64,000 nt of DNA, from positions 2,604,001-2,668,000 of the forward strand of contig NZ_CP065383.1 in the NCBI RefSeq assembly GCF_015775515.1. The letters are read 5' to 3'. Shown here in pieces: positions 48,257-56,855 of this stretch. The stretch comes from Atribacter laminatus (GTDB lineage: Bacteria > Atribacterota > Atribacteria > Atribacterales > Atribacteraceae). The first letter of the stretch is position 1. Every line of letters begins with the position of its first letter. The notes below the pieces were generated by a model. That model ran no database searches, had not been told where the DNA came from, and saw only the letters and a program-made list of their open reading frames with translations. The position numbers were made by a program, and so were the translations under genes.

Positions 48257-49770
48257 CTCAACTTTCGCAGTTCAATAATAGCACTTTTTCTCTCAACCAT
48301 GCTGGAAGACTATTTACAAAATAGATGAGTAGCTCTTTGACTTTTTCTTCTGAAAGGACAAGAATCTGTTTGATGGTCGTCTTCAGGAGCTCAAGAAGAA
48401 GAGTGAGTGCTTCCATAAGAGTGATATCCTGAATTTCATCATAGCAGGCATAGAAAAGCTCGCCAAAGGTTCGGGGATCGGTGTTTCTCCGGGCAATAAC
48501 CGCGAGCATGATATAGCGGATAAAGACGATACTGGTATGGGATACCAGAGCATCATAGGATCGAACCTGAAATTCCCGAGTGAGTTTCAAGACCGATTTC
48601 ACCATCTTGAAGAAAACCTCGATATCCCAGCGTTTCCCATAGAGGGTGACGATCTCGTCTTCAGAAAGAGACAGATCAGTTGAAAGCAGTGCCAACCATT
48701 GAGATTTTTGTTTTTCACTTCGGACAAAGACAATCCGAGCTAAAAGTGGTTTCCCAGTGAGATTGAGATTCACGACACCCGATCCAATGATATTGCCGTG
48801 TGGTCTTTTCTGAATTCTGGTGAAAAGAGAGGAAAGAGAAAGAACTTTTCCACCAAAAGAATAGTAAATTTTTGGGGTGTTTTTGAGCATGCACACCACT
48901 GATAATCCGCGAAGAGCACATTTGCGGATGAGGGCTGGAAAACTGAACCAACTATCAAAAAGAATAGTTGAGACCAAAGGACAGTGTTTTAAGGCTCCAT
49001 CCAGTAGGTTGAAGAAGACTTCTGGAGTTTTTTCTTGGGATTCTTTCCGAAGGTGAGCTCTTTTGCTCCGCCCATCAACGGAGGCATCCATGGGACAGAG
49101 CTGGTTTTCTTTGCGGTGAGAACTTAACAATGAAAAAGCAAAGGGAATGAAGGTAGCACCATCGGTGAGTCCTAAAGTGAGCATTCTGAAACCCACGACT
49201 AAAATCGTCCTTGGGTGTGATCATAGAATCGAGAGAGCCCTTCAACTTTCAAGCTCCGAGGTCGTTCATAGGGGGAATCATCCACCACCCAGGTGTAGCG
49301 TTTCAAACTGGTAAAAGGAAGGAGCGCTTCAGAGACTACTTTGGTACTCAAAAGAAAGAGCAATTTTCGCCAGCTCCCACTGGTCTTGTGGAGGAAACGG
49401 TAAAGAGTGTCTTTCTTTCCTTGGAAAAGGGGATGTCGAGATTGGAGAAGACCAGCAACGTTTTTCTGAGTAAAGACTAGGAGAAAGATCATCTGAAAGA
49501 CGTCTTTGACTGGGAACCCTTTCTTTTTGTTCATATGGCATTTTCGAAACAGTTGGTTCACTTTAAACTCCTTCATAAAGGAGGAAAACATGGGTAACAA
49601 GGTCCTTTCATTTTTCAAATTTTCTGGTAGGATAGTCATGAAGACACCTCTCTCTTTGTGGTGATTGGTTTTTTTCCTTAAGTCAATTCTACCAGAAAGG
49701 AGGGGTGTTTTCATTAAAAAACCCTTTAAAATCAAGGTTTTTCAGCATTTATTTTAGTGCGAAAGTTGAG
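48257..49770 (-). mobile_element. IS4-like insertion sequence, 1.5 kb, inactivated
   Basis: Terminal inverted repeats are CTCAACTTTCGCA (48257-48269) and TGCGAAAGTTGAG (49758-49770). A 7-bp direct repeat TTACCTT flanks the element (48250-48256 and 49771-49777), consistent with a target duplication. The single transposase gene is broken by a frameshift. The element lies between an importer operon and its terminator. Confidence 0.88.
48258..49639 (-). pseudogene. IS4 family transposase, frameshifted
   Basis: The N-terminal part (MTILPENLKNERTLLPMF to VVDDSPYERPRS, then FYDHTQGRF) ends at a TAG near 49199. The rest continues in another frame as GFRMLTLGLTDGATFIPFAF and ends inside the terminal repeat. 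Joined, it has an IS4 DDE layout: D in VVDDSPYE, D in STILFDSWFS, and the YREK-like YGKRWDIEVFFKMVK. Adding one T to the T4 run before the TAG restores GRFLVVGFRM. The slip site does not match a canonical frameshift heptamer, so this is a mutation or a homopolymer read error. The N-terminal frame is open to 49735, but ATG 49639 after AGAGGTG is the likely start. Confidence 0.85.
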
Positions 49771-49853: not shown

Positions 49854-51206
49854 TTATAAAATTGCTCCTTGATCTTTTAAAGTTCTCTGCAAAACATCTA
49901 CCGGAACCTTCCGAAGAGAAGAGCACTCCTCTTGAATAGTTAAAGCGCTTGCCACTCCGGCTGCTTGACCGATTGCCATACAGGGTGCCATCACTCGGAA
50001 GGATGCCATGGCCTCATGGGTTGCTGATATGGAACGACCGGCAACCAGAATATTTTCTAGTTCCTGAGGTAACAAACAACGGTAGGGAATACCGTATTCA
50101 CCTTGATCCTCGACATATTGAAAATAGGAATCGATCCGATCCTGCTTGTGAACATCGATTGGATATCCACACCAGGCGATGGTGTCTTGGTATTTTTTGC
50201 CCAAAAGAATGTCTTCCTTGTTTAAAGAATAGTCGCCAATAATCCGCCGTGATTCTCGGATCCCTATTTTTACCGGAGTGAAAGAGAGATGAGCATTTTC
50301 GAATCCAGGAACATGTTGACGTAGGAATTGAAAAATTTGATGAGCTTCACGTCGTGCCGAGATCTCTGCCCAGGAGAGAGCAGCGGGGTCAAGTGAATCG
50401 GCGATGATTTTTATGGTGTTGATAAACATTTCTCCTTGATAGAGGCACATCAACCAGGCACGATGGTCAGCAATTCCATCGAAGAGGCCTTCTTTTTCAA
50501 TTATTTGTCGCCAAGGTTTAAATTGAGTTGTGATATGAAAAATTGGGGCAAAATTAGAATTGGGATCGTAATGGGGATTCACTACGATCTCCTCGTCGGT
50601 TAATTGAAAAGCTTTTTGACTGTCGATGCCATTTATTTTAAAAATCATCGTCATTGGTTGACAGTTCCCCGAATCATCTCCCAATTCAAACTCCATTCCG
50701 GCTTTTGCAATAATATCAGCGTCTCCAGTACAATCGATAATAATTTTCCCCTCTAAATAAAAACGACCACCCTTACTCTCAAAAAAAACTCCTTTGACCT
50801 GATTATTCTTTAACACAGGATCAATAGCTAAGCAACGGTGAAGAATCTCAACCTTTTGCTCCAAAAGAAGTTCCTGGGCGGCAATTTTCACTTTTTCCGG
50901 ATCAATAGGGGTAATGGTTTTCATATGTCCATGTTGGAGTGGAACATGCCCTGGTGTACCTCCCAGTTTTTTTAGATAATCGACGAACAACTGGGCAAAT
51001 CCACCAATGATTTGTTCACCCTTCATATTATGGAAAGTCAATATCGGTAGGCCAGAAGTTGCCATTCCTCCTAAAAATCCATACTGCTCCAAAAGAACAA
51101 CTTTTACCCCTAAGAGCGCAGCAGAGTATGCAGCAGCAATACCTGCAGGACCACCACCACAAACAATAACATCATAAGATCCATAAGGTTCAACTTGGGT
51201 TTTCAT
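49854..51206 (-). CDS. FAD-dependent oxidoreductase (FAD_oxidored family)
   Basis: 450 residues. The FAD motif is VIVCGGGPAGIAAAYSAALLG, then FLGGMATSGLP. IDCTGDADIIAKAGMEFELG, IRESRRIIGDY and LVAGRSISATHEAMASFRVMAPCMAIGQAAGVASAL are characteristic. It is a shorter relative of the 748-residue protein at 39952, without the C-terminal beta-rich region. No signal peptide is seen. Its position between two sugar operons suggests oxidation of a carbohydrate-derived compound; the substrate is unknown. Confidence 0.88.
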   Translation of the reverse strand: MKTQVEPYGSYDVIVCGGGPAGIAAAYSAALLGVKVVLLEQYGFLGGMATSGLPILTFHNMKGEQIIGGFAQLFVDYLKKLGGTPGHVPLQHGHMKTITPIDPEKVKIAAQELLLEQKVEILHRCLAIDPVLKNNQVKGVFFESKGGRFYLEGKIIIDCTGDADIIAKAGMEFELGDDSGNCQPMTMIFKINGIDSQKAFQLTDEEIVVNPHYDPNSNFAPIFHITTQFKPWRQIIEKEGLFDGIADHRAWLMCLYQGEMFINTIKIIADSLDPAALSWAEISARREAHQIFQFLRQHVPGFENAHLSFTPVKIGIRESRRIIGDYSLNKEDILLGKKYQDTIAWCGYPIDVHKQDRIDSYFQYVEDQGEYGIPYRCLLPQELENILVAGRSISATHEAMASFRVMAPCMAIGQAAGVASALTIQEECSSLRKVPVDVLQRTLKDQGAIL

Positions 51207-52025: not shown

Positions 52026-53588
52026 TTATGATTCTTGATACTTCAAGTCTCCGGCTGCTTTGGCTCGAATCCGGGTGGCGTTCCCGGGAAGATAAGCCAG
52101 GGGGACATCTTCAATTTCGACGATATGAACTGTGGCAGGGTCAGCACCAGCTTTAACAGCTTCTTCGGTTGCAATGGTTTTAGCTTGATGAAGTGCCTGT
52201 TCTCGACTCATCTCGCTTAAAGAAAATACTCGCTCAACCTGACCGCTAACCTGAGCAATGGCGGCACCAAGAGCATTGGCCACTTCATAATTATCCGGTC
52301 GGAGGATTTCGGAAATTCCTTCAAGGTGATCACCTACCAAAATACTCCCACCTCCAACTAAGATAAGCGGCATTGGATCAGAAGAAAGTTTCATCTTGTC
52401 GACAGCTTCATTGAACATATTGCGAATGATCCCCAATACTTGCCGGACAAATCCTTCATCCAGATGGCTCACTCGAGATGCATCACCAATCGATGCCATT
52501 CCAGCTCGGACGGCTACATCGGTGGTAGTAAGGGTCTTTCCTCCAAACACCAAAGCCTCCTCAGTGATAAGATATCCAACACTTTCTGGACCTACTTTAA
52601 TTTTTCCATCATGTTCGGTTACAATTGTTCCGCCTCCCAAACCAAGGGAAATTAAATCGGGCATCCGGAAATTGGTTCGAACACCTCCAATTTCTTCAGC
52701 AACCGATGACTCGCGCGGGAAACCTTTGTTAATGACTCCCACATCACTGGTGGTGCCACCAATATCTAAAACAATAGCTTCATCAACACCACTTAAATAT
52801 GAAGCGCCCCGAATGCTATTGGTAGGACCACAAGCCACGGTTAAAATTGGATAATTCATGGCATAATCTATCGACATGAGTGTTCCATCGTTTTGACAGA
52901 AAAAAATGGCGGCTTTTTGGATTCCTTCTTGTTGAAGCCCTTTGATAAATGCTTGAGCAGTCGTTTTAGCAACATGGTGGAGGGCAGCGTTGAGAATAGT
53001 GGCATTTTCTCTTTCCAGAAGACCGATTGAACCAATTTCATGGGAGAGTGAGACGGGAATGTCTCCTAATTTTTCCCGAATCATTTCGGCAACTTTCAAT
53101 TCATGGGCTGATGAAATAGGGGAGAAGACTGAAGTAATGGCTATTGCGTCAACTTTCCCTTTTAATTCGGAGACACAGGTCAGAATCTCACTTTCATCAA
53201 GATGAGTAATTTCTCGTCCGTCGAATTCATGGCCACCCTGGACAATGTAATAATTTTCTCCAACCGCTGAAACCAAGTCCTCCGGCCAATCTACCATGGG
53301 AACAACAGCCATGGTTGCCGGTTTGGCAATTCGAATAACTCCCACTCGGCAAAGTCGCTTTCTTTCAACAATAGCATTAGTACAGTGAGTGGTTCCCAAC
53401 ATGGCAAAGCGTATTTTATTTCGATCTACACGAGAACTTTCGAGAACCTGATGGACCGCATTCAAAATCCCGGAAGTTACATCAGCAGTGGAAGGGGTTT
53501 TTGTCTTGCTCATTAATTCATTGTTTTGGTTGATGAGCACAGCGTCGGTATTGGTACCTCCGACATCGATTCCGAGACTGTAAATCAT
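52026..53588 (-). CDS. Hydantoinase/oxoprolinase family protein (HyuA N-type)
   Basis: 520 residues with the actin-like ATPase start MIYSLGIDVGGTNTDAVLI and further nucleotide-site motifs (EAIVLDIGGTTSDVGVI; LGLGGGTIVTEHDGKI; LILVGGGSILVG). It is shorter than full HyuA or oxoprolinase A subunits (about 680 residues) and has no HyuB partner here. It overlaps the DUF917 gene by 4 bp. This compact form is a known partner of DUF917 proteins. Likely role: ATP-dependent opening of a cyclic amide such as a hydantoin. Substrate unknown. Confidence 0.88.
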   Translation of the reverse strand: MIYSLGIDVGGTNTDAVLINQNNELMSKTKTPSTADVTSGILNAVHQVLESSRVDRNKIRFAMLGTTHCTNAIVERKRLCRVGVIRIAKPATMAVVPMVDWPEDLVSAVGENYYIVQGGHEFDGREITHLDESEILTCVSELKGKVDAIAITSVFSPISSAHELKVAEMIREKLGDIPVSLSHEIGSIGLLERENATILNAALHHVAKTTAQAFIKGLQQEGIQKAAIFFCQNDGTLMSIDYAMNYPILTVACGPTNSIRGASYLSGVDEAIVLDIGGTTSDVGVINKGFPRESSVAEEIGGVRTNFRMPDLISLGLGGGTIVTEHDGKIKVGPESVGYLITEEALVFGGKTLTTTDVAVRAGMASIGDASRVSHLDEGFVRQVLGIIRNMFNEAVDKMKLSSDPMPLILVGGGSILVGDHLEGISEILRPDNYEVANALGAAIAQVSGQVERVFSLSEMSREQALHQAKTIATEEAVKAGADPATVHIVEIEDVPLAYLPGNATRIRAKAAGDLKYQES

Positions 53589-54682
53589 TGATGGTTTCCT
53601 CCTTCGCTGATGAGTTTTTCAACCGGTATATAATCGACATCATATCCAAAATAGCGGGGCCCCACAGTTTCAATCCCCCTTGGTGTCCGCCATTTTGGAT
53701 CGCAGGGAATGCTCAATACCAAAACCCGATGACCATAACGAATAGCTTCGGTAGTGACCGGAATAGCGCTATCCAAATTAACAATACAGATTAAATCAGG
53801 AACCGAGGCGATAATTTTTTCGTCACGAATGGCAATTAAGTTCTCGTTTTGAAATTGGACTTTGAGGTTTTTCCCTCGATAGTCTTCGATGCCCTCAATT
53901 TGAGCTTCGCCTCGCACAAAGCCTCCCTCAGTACGACGTAAAACATCAATCACTTTTCCCTTGAAAAGCTCAAAACCTCCGGTCACCTCTAAAAGATTTT
54001 TAATGGGATTTTTACCCTTTTTTCGAGCAGTTAGGATCGATTCTCCAATTTTTGCTGAAAGCGAAAGAGTATTTCGAATACAAGCTTCCTTAAGGACCTT
54101 GCCTGGCATTTGATAAATACTGAGCATGACCGATCCACCCATGGTTACACAGATATTTCGAGCCAAAGTCTCTGTCCAAAAATTATTAATACTTTCCATG
54201 ATTACGGTATTTCCCTTTTCATCAGCAATAATCATGGGGGTCGCTGAAACATCCCAAAGATGGAAGGAAGTCATTTGCAATTCAGGAAAAGCTCGTCCCA
54301 TTCCATCGCAATCTAAAAGTGGAATTCCAGTTCTTGCCGCAACCGATATCGGAATCATTGAATTGACTCCACCAGCTTCAATGGGAAGAGTGGCATAAAT
54401 ATCCTTTCCGGCATATTTCTTAATCCCGTTAAAAGCTCGGAGTACTTCTTCGCCATTGGCCAGTTTCTCAATGAGAACCGTCGGTGCACCCATCATGGCA
54501 GTCGGAACAATAACGGCATCATCGGGAACTTCGTCAGGATCAAAGAGCTGAACTGGCCCGTTTTGTTTTATAGCCTGAATGGCCATCAGTTTACCCAGGT
54601 GTGGATCGCCACCACCACCGGTTCCCAAAAGAGCGGCCCCGAGAGCGATATATTCAACATCTTGAAGATCAATAAATTTCAT
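53585..54682 (-). CDS. DUF917 family protein
   Basis: 365 residues with the family landmarks DVEYIALGAALLGTGGGGDPHLG at the N terminus, LPIEAGGVNSMIPI, GIPLLDCDGMGRAFPELQM and a C-terminal GHRVLVLSIPCDPKWRTPRGIETVGPRYFGYDVDYIPVE. DUF917 proteins are usually found next to hydantoinase-like genes, as here; a role as the second part of the hydrolase is often proposed but not proven to my knowledge. Cytoplasmic, translationally coupled to hyuA. Confidence 0.9.
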   Translation of the reverse strand: MKFIDLQDVEYIALGAALLGTGGGGDPHLGKLMAIQAIKQNGPVQLFDPDEVPDDAVIVPTAMMGAPTVLIEKLANGEEVLRAFNGIKKYAGKDIYATLPIEAGGVNSMIPISVAARTGIPLLDCDGMGRAFPELQMTSFHLWDVSATPMIIADEKGNTVIMESINNFWTETLARNICVTMGGSVMLSIYQMPGKVLKEACIRNTLSLSAKIGESILTARKKGKNPIKNLLEVTGGFELFKGKVIDVLRRTEGGFVRGEAQIEGIEDYRGKNLKVQFQNENLIAIRDEKIIASVPDLICIVNLDSAIPVTTEAIRYGHRVLVLSIPCDPKWRTPRGIETVGPRYFGYDVDYIPVEKLISEGGNHQ

Positions 54683-54708
54683 TTTTTACCTCCACGCAGT
54701 TTTTAAGC

Positions 54709-55995
54709 TTACTTTTTGGATGGAACCGGTTGAGGTTGCTTAACAACTGAAATTAATCCAAGATAAACAACAAAGGAAACAACCATGGCATTGATTGGAG
54801 CAATGCCAATCTTAAGATATATACCTACCAGTGCTCCAATTAGCCAGGATAGGATCCCCACCCAATTGGCTCCCGGATATTTAAACCATTTAGAGGGATC
54901 ACCTTTTTTCTTAACCCAGTAGTCGGCAATCATGACTCCGGCAACTGGCGGTATAGTCGAGGTTAAAATCGTTAAAAAGTTCAAAAAGTAATTCATAATT
55001 CCAGCAACGGCTAACACGGTTCCTAAAATACCTGCTATAGCAGTGGCTAAGGCCCGTTTTGAATCGGGTAGCTGAAACAAATTGGTAAGTGCTATACCAG
55101 CCGAATACGCATTGATGGTATTAGTTGTCCAAGTTGCTAAAATGAGAATAATTAAACCCAAAACCGGAGCCCCTAAAGCTGACATGACTTGAGTAATATC
55201 ATAAGTACCGGCTAAAAGTGCCATAACCGAGCCCATAAAAAGCATAGCAACTCCGGCAGGCCAGACACCCCACACCGATGAAAGAACCGCTTCTCGGCGA
55301 TTTCGAGCATAACGGGAAAAATCTCCAGCAATAACACCACCTACTGCAAAAGTACCCACCGCCAGGGCAATTCCTTGAACAAATGGAAAGGGAGTAGGAG
55401 GTTGATAGGAGGAAAGAATTGAAGAACCGTATTTTACAAAAGACGAATAGGTTCCATATACGCTCAGAGCGATCAAAGCTGGAACGGCAATATAGTTCAA
55501 ATACTTGACTGCATTAAACCCTATAATCGCAGTACTGAGCATGATAACTCCCCAAATTAATGATGAAAGCCAAACCGGAAAATTCACACCCAACCATGTA
55601 TTCAATACGCTGCTAAAAGCCGCACCACAAACGTTTGCTTGTACGCCAAACCATCCCAAAGTTGAAATTCCCAAGATCAACGATATCAAAACCCGAGACC
55701 CGCTAAAACCAAAAGAAGGAATGGCAGCGCTGACTGTCGGTCTTCCTAAATCGGCTGCTTGCATTCCCTGAAAACTCATATAAATTACCACAATGGTATA
55801 GCCAATAATGCCAGCAAGCAGAGCATGTAATAAATTCAAACCGGTTATTAAAGCTCCTCCCATCATCAAGGCCGGAACACAAATCATTGTTCCAATCCAG
55901 ATCAAAGCAATACTCGGCCAACTTTGACGATTTTCCTTTGGTACAGCTTCTAATGCATATTTTTCAAAAACATCTTCACCTTTCTTAGTACTCAT
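54709..55995 (-). CDS. NCS1-type permease (cytosine/purine/hydantoin, CodB-like)
   Basis: 428 residues with about 12 predicted helices. It begins with the family text DVFEKYALEAVPKENRQSW and has MQAADLGRPTVSAAIPSFGFSGSRVLISL. Related proteins carry cytosine, purines, allantoin or hydantoins with a cation. Placed between a racemase and DUF917/HyuA genes, it is the likely importer of the ring compound that the operon degrades. Confidence 0.88.
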   Translation of the reverse strand: MSTKKGEDVFEKYALEAVPKENRQSWPSIALIWIGTMICVPALMMGGALITGLNLLHALLAGIIGYTIVVIYMSFQGMQAADLGRPTVSAAIPSFGFSGSRVLISLILGISTLGWFGVQANVCGAAFSSVLNTWLGVNFPVWLSSLIWGVIMLSTAIIGFNAVKYLNYIAVPALIALSVYGTYSSFVKYGSSILSSYQPPTPFPFVQGIALAVGTFAVGGVIAGDFSRYARNRREAVLSSVWGVWPAGVAMLFMGSVMALLAGTYDITQVMSALGAPVLGLIILILATWTTNTINAYSAGIALTNLFQLPDSKRALATAIAGILGTVLAVAGIMNYFLNFLTILTSTIPPVAGVMIADYWVKKKGDPSKWFKYPGANWVGILSWLIGALVGIYLKIGIAPINAMVVSFVVYLGLISVVKQPQPVPSKK

Positions 55996-56117
55996 GTTCT
56001 CATCCCCCTTAAATATCGGTTATTGTATTCGAAAGCTTTTACAAATTTAGAAATACTTATAAAATCTTATTTTTCAATATTTATATGTATAATCTAGAAC
56101 TGCTAAAAAAGCTTTTA

Positions 56118-56855
56118 TTATGAACCAAGCCGCTCCCATAGATTCCGTTCTTTGTTAGAAGGAAATTGATAGGTTTTTTTGCTCTGAGCAAGCTTTAAAT
56201 TAACCAGTGCTTCCAGATAGGCAAGTGCGGTAGATACTGGATAAATCAACGGAACTCGATGCCCTCGCTTGAAAAGCTCCGCAGAAAGTTCATCGGCAAC
56301 ACCCATCATACCGGTACAACCCAAAATAAGAGCATGAGCCTGGTCTTTACAAAGTGCTTTTTCTGATTCTTCAACCAGTGCATTCATTAATTTACTCCGA
56401 TCGCCTAATTCAAGAACCGGAATATTAACCCATCGGATTGATGCCAATTTTTTCCCAACACCGGCTTCATACGCCAAGTTTTCCAGTAAGACAACGACAC
56501 TTTCCAAAACAGTAATCACTGAGAAGCGGTGGGAAAGATCAGCAGCAAAAAGTATCGAGGTTCTTCCTGGGCCTACTACCGGAATTTCTAAACGTTCTCG
56601 AGCTGCAGCCAGTGCAGGATCCCCCATGCAATCAATAAACACGCCATCGAATCCTTGCTTTTGAGCATTTTCCGCTAAATGAAGAATTCCTGGCGCACAG
56701 GCGGCCTCATCATAAGCTGATTCGATAGAAGCCGATCCATAAGGAATACATTCTACATCGATTTCTGTCCCCGGTGACAAAAATTGTTTCACCTCTTTCT
56801 CGGTTTCTGCCTCAAATAATTTGGTAATTATTGGTACAATAATTTTAAGTTTCAC
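56118..56855 (-). CDS. Aspartate/hydantoin racemase family protein
   Basis: 245 residues. The two catalytic cysteines of the family are visible in GVFIDCMGDPAL and LILGCTGMMGVA. Members racemise hydantoins, allantoin, aspartate or glutamate without cofactor. It is first in the operon racemase - permease - DUF917 - HyuA, so 5-substituted hydantoins or allantoin-like compounds are likely substrates. AGGAGG precedes the ATG. Confidence 0.87.
   Translation of the reverse strand: MKLKIIVPIITKLFEAETEKEVKQFLSPGTEIDVECIPYGSASIESAYDEAACAPGILHLAENAQKQGFDGVFIDCMGDPALAAARERLEIPVVGPGRTSILFAADLSHRFSVITVLESVVVLLENLAYEAGVGKKLASIRWVNIPVLELGDRSKLMNALVEESEKALCKDQAHALILGCTGMMGVADELSAELFKRGHRVPLIYPVSTALAYLEALVNLKLAQSKKTYQFPSNKERNLWERLGS

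What the first reader, a model, noticed from the sequence alone, without database searches (positions are those of the whole stretch)
52026..56855. Hydantoin-like operon without classical hydantoinase or HyuB
The operon codes for a two-cysteine racemase, an NCS1 permease, DUF917 and a short HyuA-like ATPase. The classical routes need a dihydropyrimidinase-type hydantoinase or a HyuA/HyuB pair plus carbamoylase, none of which is here. DUF917 may act as the missing subunit, forming an ATP-dependent ring-opening enzyme.
Basis: partly seen in the sequence, partly recalled or inferred. Interest (0 to 1): 0.5.

Follow-up and report, generated by a model that had tools for sequence, protein, structure and literature searches.

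The report
Paired HyuA and DUF917 gene operon
A bacterial gene set probably takes up a ring-shaped nitrogen compound and breaks it with a two-part, ATP-driven enzyme whose second part differs from the textbook one; the gene pair is widespread and named in databases, but I found no measurement of what it does.

Summary
On the minus strand lie a two-cysteine racemase, an NCS1 permease, a DUF917 protein and a 520-aa HyuA-type ATPase. Genome searches found no HyuB and no second HyuA or DUF917; the three amidohydrolases look like housekeeping enzymes.

The gene set is not rare. HyuA lies beside or near DUF917 in 75 of 80 related loci; in the other five the contig ends there. A regulator-permease-DUF917-HyuA cassette occurs in Listeria, Enterococcus and Lactiplantibacillus records.

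The pairing marks one clade of DUF917. True thiohydantoin desulfurases, also DUF917 proteins, have no HyuA neighbour in 4 of 4 cases. Across 39 loci the paired proteins co-diverge (r 0.92; 0.85 after correcting for the permease). A read-through fold of the pair gives pTM 0.78 against 0.53 for a HyuA-racemase control with a thinner alignment.

Best reading: HyuA phosphorylates a ring carbonyl and DUF917 completes the ring opening in HyuB's place, without HyuB's metal site. Partnership is well supported; activity, substrate and bond cleaved are inferred.

The parts
56118..56855 (-). Asp/Glu/hydantoin racemase family protein, 245 aa, cysteines C76 and C180 in the two active-site motifs
   Evidence: Pfam PF01177 6e-36; nearest solved structures 3qvj 3.8e-34 (putative hydantoin racemase) and 5lfd 1.2e-23 (allantoin racemase); both cysteines align with positions that are cysteine in 3qvj and serine in 3qvk; positions
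54709..55995 (-). NCS1-type permease, 428 aa
   Evidence: Pfam PF02133 8e-40; nearest solved structure cytosine permease 7qoa 1.2e-42, then hydantoin transporter Mhp1 1.2e-19; below the NCBIfam cytosine-permease cut-off, 233.5 of 326 bits
53585..54682 (-). DUF917 (S-Me-THD_N + S-Me-THD_C) protein, 365 aa, proposed second subunit
   Evidence: Pfam 7e-61 and 5e-73; 97 and 89 bits against desulfurase cut-offs of 450 and 440; only significant solved relative by sequence 2o3i
52026..53588 (-). Short HyuA-type ASKHA ATPase, 520 aa, proposed kinase subunit; starts inside the DUF917 stop (ATGA)
   Evidence: Pfam PF05378 and PF01968; DVGGTNTD at 8, DIGGTTSD at 275 and GGGS at 412; profile match to N-methylhydantoinase 7hk5 3.7e-45 and caprolactamase 6yra 1e-32

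Best explanation
The operon takes up a small cyclic amide, urea or imide through the NCS1 permease, equilibrates its stereocentre with the two-cysteine racemase, and opens the ring with a two-subunit ATP-dependent enzyme made of the short HyuA and DUF917. HyuA phosphorylates a ring carbonyl oxygen, giving an imidate phosphate. DUF917, a member of the thiohydantoin desulfurase fold family, binds that activated ring and adds water at the activated carbon, so phosphate plays the leaving-group role that sulfur plays in the desulfurases. Shown here: the four genes, intact ATPase motifs, no match to the HyuA C-terminal domain, no HyuB found in the genome, clade-specific linkage and co-divergence of the pair. 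Supported by prediction only, on homologues: a physical complex. Inferred: phosphorylation, water attack, ring opening, the hydantoin-like substrate, the direction of the pathway.
For: Linkage: HyuA sequence in 75 of 80 loci, and in the other five the DUF917 match starts 5-164 nt from the contig end; all 10 annotated plasmid-collection regions opened, of 134 records matched, both gene orders, down to 24% DUF917 identity; 30 of 30 high-scoring loci laid from a draw of one phylum, 29 directly and one through a neighbouring second DUF917. Co-divergence: r 0.78 over 78 pairs, 0 of 2000 permutations; in 39 loci with all three genes r is 0.92 for DUF917-HyuA, 0.69 for DUF917-permease and 0.77 for HyuA-permease, partial correlations 0.85 (DUF917-HyuA given permease) and -0.08 (DUF917-permease given HyuA). 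Second pairs in six loci (L017, L021, L024, L027, L030, L031) form their own group in both trees. Fold: DUF917-HyuA read-through of L005, pTM 0.78, mean pLDDT 82.5; HyuA-racemase control pTM 0.53. HyuA aligns 501 residues with caprolactamase CapA (residues 6-613) and 501 with N-methylhydantoinase. Kinase chemistry on a lactam or amide oxygen is the proposal for those enzymes (PMC8453981 and PMC5214803, passages read). Desulfurases proper: 4 above the cut-off, none with HyuA; the HyuA-paired DUF917 proteins scanned stay at or below 125 bits. Some relatives add a nitrilase-type hydrolase, an M19 dipeptidase or a cyclodipeptide-oxidase-like pair.
Against: No activity or interaction has been measured. 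The fold control had a thinner alignment (16 against 67 rows), so part of the pTM difference may be depth. DUF917 has no conserved histidine and thus no HyuB-type metal tetrad. Five residues invariant in the 34 sequences aligned (E72, E102, N107, D126, R249) are all replaced in the four true desulfurases, so the chemistry may not be shared. DUF917 proteins without HyuA are not all desulfurases: three mid-group proteins scanned score 49-97 bits and one Pseudomonadota protein 76 bits, so the split 'sulfur alone, oxygen with kinase' is not clean. By Z-score dehydratase and reductase activator subunits match the HyuA model as well as CapA does (17-19 against 18), though over less than half the residues. 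Water attack on an imidate phosphate could simply return the substrate unless the ring bond breaks. No carbamoylase is in the operon.
Confidence: 0.5

Rival explanations
1. HyuA is an ATP-driven activator or reactivator of DUF917, like the ASKHA activators of acyl-CoA dehydratases or diol dehydratase, and DUF917 alone is the catalyst.
For: HyuA shares the ASKHA fold with such activators (1hux Z 17.9, 9gai Z 18.6, diol dehydratase reactivase 2d0o Z 17.4); desulfurase-type DUF917 proteins have no HyuA neighbour; one HyuA stands with four or five DUF917 genes in several Chloroflexi loci.
Against: [quoted passage not shown] by sequence it is nearest to N-methylhydantoinase. No radical or cobalamin chemistry is known to me for DUF917 (recalled).
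Confidence: 0.13
2. DUF917 is a stand-alone hydrolase and HyuA catalyses a separate step of the same pathway; they share an operon but not a complex.
For: In one DUF917 group 0 of 20 loci, and in another 3 of 22 ORFs, have HyuA adjacent. Five further DUF917 proteins of Pseudomonadota lack it, four of them desulfurases.
Against: In the window's clade the pairing is constant with order changing, and trees match beyond what the linked permease gives. Homologues of the pair fold together in prediction.
Confidence: 0.17
3. The pair activates a ring carbonyl for another nucleophile (ammonia, an amine, bicarbonate) or runs in the synthetic direction, so it is a ligase- or carboxylase-like enzyme and not a hydrolase.
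For: The HyuA family includes acetone and acetophenone carboxylases; DUF917 lacks the HyuB metal site.
Against: Permease plus racemase points to catabolism of an imported compound (inference). Some relatives carry nitrilase-type hydrolases or dipeptidases.
Confidence: 0.1
4. Classical ring opening and carbamoyl removal are done by enzymes encoded elsewhere in the genome, and DUF917-HyuA is peripheral.
For: Three unassigned nitrilase-superfamily proteins exist elsewhere in the genome.
Against: The amidohydrolases look like PyrC (between PyrB and PyrF), NagA and an Xaa-Pro dipeptidase; no HyuB found.
Confidence: 0.07

Closest known systems
ATP-dependent HyuA/HyuB hydantoinases, 5-oxoprolinase, caprolactamase CapAB, N-methylhydantoinase (PDB 7hk5, 9h03, 6yra)
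   Same: HyuA-type ASKHA kinase with intact phosphate motifs; the model of a homologue aligns 501 residues with CapA
   Different: The match ends at CapA residue 613 of 691 and HyuA is about 100 residues shorter inside that span; no Hydant_A_C match; no HyuB found in the genome; [quoted passage not shown]
Thiohydantoin desulfurase and S-methyl thiohydantoin desulfurase (NCBIfam NF058529, NF058532)
   Same: Same Pfam domains S-Me-THD_N and S-Me-THD_C
   Different: 89 and 97 bits against cut-offs of 440 and 450; the four true desulfurases found here have no HyuA neighbour and differ at five residues invariant in the window's group
DUF917 genes in cyclodipeptide-oxidase clusters (PMC11055893)
   Same: That paper notes DUF917 and hydantoin racemases enriched in such clusters and suggests hydantoinase activity (passages read); relative L013 has permease, racemase, nitroreductase, PF19585, DUF917 and HyuA in a row
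   Different: The window's operon has no cyclodipeptide-oxidase genes; the passages read do not discuss HyuA as partner
Regulator - cytosine permease - DUF917 - hydantoinase/oxoprolinase cassettes annotated in Firmicutes
   Same: Same permease, DUF917 and HyuA order in Listeria, Enterococcus raffinosus and Lactiplantibacillus records of the plasmid collection
   Different: Those carry a PucR regulator, and no racemase of this family is annotated in the stretch shown

Membership tests
ATP-dependent HyuA/HyuB hydantoinase/oxoprolinase | HyuA-type ASKHA ATPase with PHOSPHATE 1, PHOSPHATE 2 and glycine-rich adenosine-side motifs | tested here: met
   G6, D8, G10, T12, D15, D275, G277, G278, G412, G413 invariant in 32 sequences; the family adenosine motif GxxPGP itself was not looked for
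ATP-dependent HyuA/HyuB hydantoinase/oxoprolinase | HyuA C-terminal domain (Hydant_A_C, PF19278) | tested here: not met
   No match in the window protein; the classical 693-aa HyuA of L033 does match
ATP-dependent HyuA/HyuB hydantoinase/oxoprolinase | HyuB subunit (PF02538) | tested here: not met
   No match in the 3.10-Mb single-contig genome, 97.81% complete; the search rang in 6 of 14 control genomes
[quoted passage not shown]
   Best histidine column of DUF917 has 14 of 34 sequences; tetrad as given in PMC8453981
Thiohydantoin / S-methyl thiohydantoin desulfurase | Score above the curated equivalog cut-off | tested here: not met
   89.4 of 440 and 97.0 of 450 bits
DUF917 / S-Me-THD fold family | Both Pfam domains over gathering score | tested here: met
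   205 and 245 bits against 27; the model of the L005 homologue aligns to 2o3i, Z 38.9 over 336 residues
Cyclic amidohydrolase (dihydropyrimidinase-type) hydantoinase | Amidohydro_1 enzyme of hydantoinase type in operon or genome | tested here: not met
   3 genome matches, best NCBIfam names Xaa-Pro dipeptidase (below cut-off), dihydroorotase, NagA
Hydantoin/allantoin racemase | Asp_Glu_race domain with two active-site cysteines | tested here: met
   PF01177 6e-36, C76 and C180; substrate untested
NCS1 transporter | Transp_cyt_pur domain | tested here: met
   8e-40; NCBIfam ncs1 subfamily cut-off itself not reached, 116.9 of 353 bits
Any of the above | ATP-dependent ring opening measured | not testable with these tools
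   Needs enzyme assay

The most novel reading that the evidence does not exclude
DUF917-HyuA is a separate architecture of ATP-dependent cyclic amidase: a desulfurase-fold subunit without a histidine metal site replaces HyuB, and HyuA's phosphoryl group takes the place of sulfur as leaving group. It may attack the urea carbonyl (C2), the carbon the desulfurases act on, and not the usual C4. That would yield products other than N-carbamoyl amino acids and explain why no carbamoylase is needed.
Probability: 0.22. Interest if true: 0.65.

Novelty: new variant of a known kind. Interest (0 to 1): 0.45.

Why it matters
DUF917 is widespread: 64 of 398 genomes drawn from one phylum (that of the Ammoniphilus locus, so Bacillota; the chosen centre counted) carry a DUF917 gene, and in the 30 high-scoring loci laid HyuA stood in the same cluster in all 30. 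Records named here include Listeria and lactic acid bacteria. If the pair is an ATP-dependent ring opener, a common uncharacterised gene pair gains a function, and the second half of the hydantoinase/ketone carboxylase chemistry proves replaceable by an unrelated protein. The contrast between stand-alone desulfurases and HyuA-paired relatives makes a direct mechanistic test possible.

Tried and rejected
Rejected: DUF917 as a HyuB homologue (different Pfam families; no metal tetrad). Rejected: the window protein as a thiohydantoin desulfurase. Rejected: 'DUF917 always needs HyuA'. Rejected: the downstream FAD oxidoreductase 49854-51206 as part of the operon; it lies 819 nt away, and the gap holds one copy of the window's repeat.

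Led nowhere: paper searches for 'thiohydantoin desulfurase' (0 papers), 'thiohydantoin'+'ergothioneine'+'desulfurase' (0), 'ergothioneine'+'hydantoin'+'thiourocanate' (0), 'COG3535' (0), PF06032 (1, PMC11055893), DUF917 (4), and a broader ergothioneine query (5, listing only). Of the four DUF917 papers I read passages of all four; PMC9503626 only lists a DUF917 gene beside a PucR regulator. That I found no measured activity rests on these searches of an open-access library; subscription papers on ergothioneine breakdown exist to my recollection and were not seen. Two searches on ATP-dependent hydantoinases and one on permease/PucR operons gave background only. No DUF917-HyuA fusion turned up among the matched frames of two draws: the longest open frames were 709 and 594 residues. 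Promoter and terminator scans were no better than shuffles. A megablast of one cassette against E. coli genomes gave nothing. Alignments A1 and A5 were discarded because partial rows were misplaced. The VIA-align list is filled by the ASKHA domain and is no test of DUF917's remote relatives.
Full report
Its nearest relatives of known name are two Candidatus Atribacteria assemblies, with 98-99% identical DUF917. They sit 122, 26 and -4 nt apart, DUF917 and HyuA overlap by ATGA, and each is preceded by a Shine-Dalgarno-like stretch.

Each protein was identified by profile. The racemase matches Asp_Glu_race and aligns with 3qvj and an allantoin racemase, with cysteines at 76 and 180. The permease is an NCS1 protein closest among solved structures to cytosine permease and below the NCBIfam cytosine-permease cut-off. 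DUF917 is now S-Me-THD_N plus S-Me-THD_C in Pfam; the protein scores 97 and 89 bits against desulfurase cut-offs of 450 and 440. HyuA matches Hydant_A_N and the first 173 of 291 positions of Hydantoinase_A, and has no Hydant_A_C match.

Genome context. One DUF917, one HyuA and no HyuB are found in the genome, with the HyuB search ringing in 6 of 14 control genomes. Three amidohydrolases have best NCBIfam names Xaa-Pro dipeptidase (below its cut-off), dihydroorotase (between PyrB and PyrF) and NagA. Five M20-type matches, one below the family cut-off, look like ArgE/DapE, a dipeptidase, an aminopeptidase and two unnamed proteins. Of four nitrilase-superfamily matches one is NAD synthase and three are unassigned, so a carbamoylase elsewhere is not excluded.

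Spread. A scan of 84,980 species genomes gave 126 relatives of DUF917, of which the best 80 loci were kept. A same-strand HyuA lay within 200 nt in 68 of 81 loci, the window included. Of the other 13, tblastn finds HyuA sequence in eight, and in the remaining five the DUF917 match begins 5 to 164 nt from the contig end, so the neighbour cannot be seen. HyuA is thus found in 75 of 80 loci, though in L043 and L079 only as an edge fragment and in L080 as a broken frame. Both orders occur (61 pairs DUF917-first, 24 HyuA-first). All ten annotated plasmid-collection regions opened, of 134 records matched, have HyuA next to DUF917, including a 24% identical DUF917 in Arthrobacter. Records of Listeria, Enterococcus raffinosus and Lactiplantibacillus carry PucR regulator, permease, DUF917 and HyuA as a compact cassette. 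Two papers print these genes together without giving a function in the passages seen: a permease, DUF917 and hydantoinase with neighbouring locus tags and changes of 1.69, 1.18 and 1.18 in a C. difficile expression table, and the same three kinds in a strain-comparison list of L. rhamnosus (PMC12915319 and PMC7513527, passages read). Within the phylum of the window, DUF917 occurs in 7 of 50 genomes, of which 4 are the window's genus (4 of 6 sampled, own genome counted), and none in the four other genomes of its family. With the nearest relatives outside the phylum in Clostridia-type genomes at 65-70%, horizontal gain is likely; this is inference.

The pairing is clade-specific. In a draw of 299 genomes from the phylum of L080 (Rhizobium, so Pseudomonadota), 10 genomes had a DUF917 over the cut-off, the chosen centre among them. 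Of the 13 DUF917 ORFs opened, 8 lie with HyuA and 5 do not; two further ORFs of the centre genome are those of L080. Four of the five are true thiohydantoin desulfurases at 592-604 bits against 440; the fifth scores 76 and is unassigned. In a draw of 398 genomes from the phylum of L069 (Ammoniphilus, so Bacillota), 64 had a match. All 30 laid loci, which are high-scoring ones, have HyuA; in L151 it is next to a second DUF917 of the same cluster. Of 24 rows scoring 65-90 bits I opened 20, and none has HyuA adjacent on its strand, two of them with one short flank (L161, L164); six tested have best desulfurase scores of 209-318 bits, below cut-off. Of about 50 mid-scoring rows I opened 20 loci with 22 DUF917 ORFs; three have HyuA, one being the locus of L005, whose protein was in the search profile. 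That choice left out most mid-scoring genes that sit divergently beside a paired cassette; in L005, L008 and L078 such a gene lies next to a distant HyuA-like protein of 21-35 bits, so HyuA partners may be commoner in that group than 3 of 22. So one clade of DUF917 is tied to HyuA, and others are not or less so.

Co-divergence. Over 78 DUF917-HyuA pairs (85 pairs, keeping the nearest DUF917 per HyuA) the tree distances correlate at 0.78; none of 2000 permutations reached it, the best giving 0.42. This ignores shared species history. As a control, in 39 loci that also hold the permease, DUF917-HyuA gives 0.92, DUF917-permease 0.69 and HyuA-permease 0.77; partial correlations are 0.85 for DUF917-HyuA given permease and -0.08 for DUF917-permease given HyuA. 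Second pairs in L017, L021, L024, L027, L030 and L031 group together in both trees, so that pair was inherited as a unit; the second pair of L069 joins them in the DUF917 tree only. Branch support was not examined.

Fold. In L005 the two genes are in frame with one stop between them. Reading it as a residue gave an 887-residue chain folded with 67 rows: mean pLDDT 82.5, pTM 0.78. The HyuA half alone could give about 0.5 (my estimate), so the relative placement is predicted with some confidence. The control, HyuA read through into the neighbouring racemase of L009, gave pTM 0.53 and mean pLDDT 73.8, with only 16 rows. Test and control are not matched in depth, and this is a weak but favourable result. 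Residues 1-355 match 2o3i (Z 38.9) and 372-887 match acetone carboxylase beta (Z 30.8), N-methylhydantoinase (21.7) and caprolactamase CapA (18.2) up to its residue 613 of 691; activators such as 9gai and 1hux score 18.6 and 17.9 over 224 and 220 residues. The short HyuA therefore keeps the kinase body, is about 100 residues shorter than CapA inside the matched span, and lacks CapA's last 80 or so residues, besides the HyuB partner.

Residues. HyuA keeps the invariant phosphate motifs described for the family in PMC5214803 and mutated in CapA in PMC8453981 (passages read). [quoted passage not shown] D124, R130, E171, R175, N279 and E280 are shared with the four true desulfurases, whereas E72, E102, N107, D126 and R249, invariant in the 34 sequences of A4, are replaced in all four. 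The alignment between clades is distant, so single columns are tentative.

Function. A permease of the nucleobase/hydantoin class, a racemase nearest to hydantoin/allantoin racemases and a lactam-kinase-type HyuA point to a five- or six-membered cyclic amide or urea. Within 80 loci (DUF917 plus up to 8 kb each side) the permease type occurs in 41, racemase in 13, a nitrilase-type hydrolase in 7, DUF1177 in 6, an M19 dipeptidase in 4 and a cyclodipeptide-oxidase-like pair in 1. The nitrilase-type hydrolases would suit removal of a carbamoyl group, but the two scanned fall below every NCBIfam cut-off. The most likely mechanism is phosphorylation of a ring carbonyl by HyuA followed by hydrolysis on DUF917. 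The family precedent is the phosphoimidate of hydantoinases and the phospholactim of caprolactamase, both themselves proposals. That sulfur-free substrates need the kinase while thio-substrates do not is my inference from the clade contrast, and the HyuA-less proteins that are not desulfurases weaken it.

Verdict. It is a widespread, database-visible but functionally open gene pair: a variant of the ATP-dependent hydantoinase scheme, not a member of the HyuA/HyuB family, since HyuB, its metal site and the HyuA C-terminal domain were tested and not met.

Noticed in passing
window 51644, 57096, 57284 and eight other places: CTCGCAATGACGG occurs 11 times within one mismatch (0.02 expected); three copies lie in the stretches on both sides of the operon: an interspersed repeat family.
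   Followed up: partly
window 48258-49735, minus strand: Two adjacent ORFs that both match transposase DDE families, likely one insertion-sequence transposase in two pieces.
   Followed up: no
L013 5011-10653: Permease, racemase, nitroreductase-like, PF19585 (cyclodipeptide-oxidase B type), DUF917 and HyuA in one run in a Clostridiaceae bacterium: a direct link between this pair and cyclodipeptide-oxidase-like genes.
   Followed up: partly
L040, L042, L045, L047, L055, L060, L076: Chloroflexi loci with one HyuA and four or five DUF917 genes in the stretch printed; one kinase may serve several DUF917 proteins.
   Followed up: no
L153, L156, L162, L172: HyuA-less DUF917 group with racemase, DUF1177 and AroM neighbours, intermediate in score to true desulfurases.
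   Followed up: partly
L015 589-10674: Two DUF917-HyuA pairs in one run with racemase, permease, nitrilase-type hydrolase, DUF1177 and AroM: a good candidate for a complete pathway.
   Followed up: no
L103 1-15089: In an Enterococcus raffinosus plasmid two permease-DUF917-HyuA cassettes follow a D-proline reductase cluster.
   Followed up: no
L033 7911-16861: A DUF917-short HyuA pair and a classical HyuA (with Hydant_A_C) plus HyuB lie side by side, with a second DUF917 before the classical pair.
   Followed up: partly
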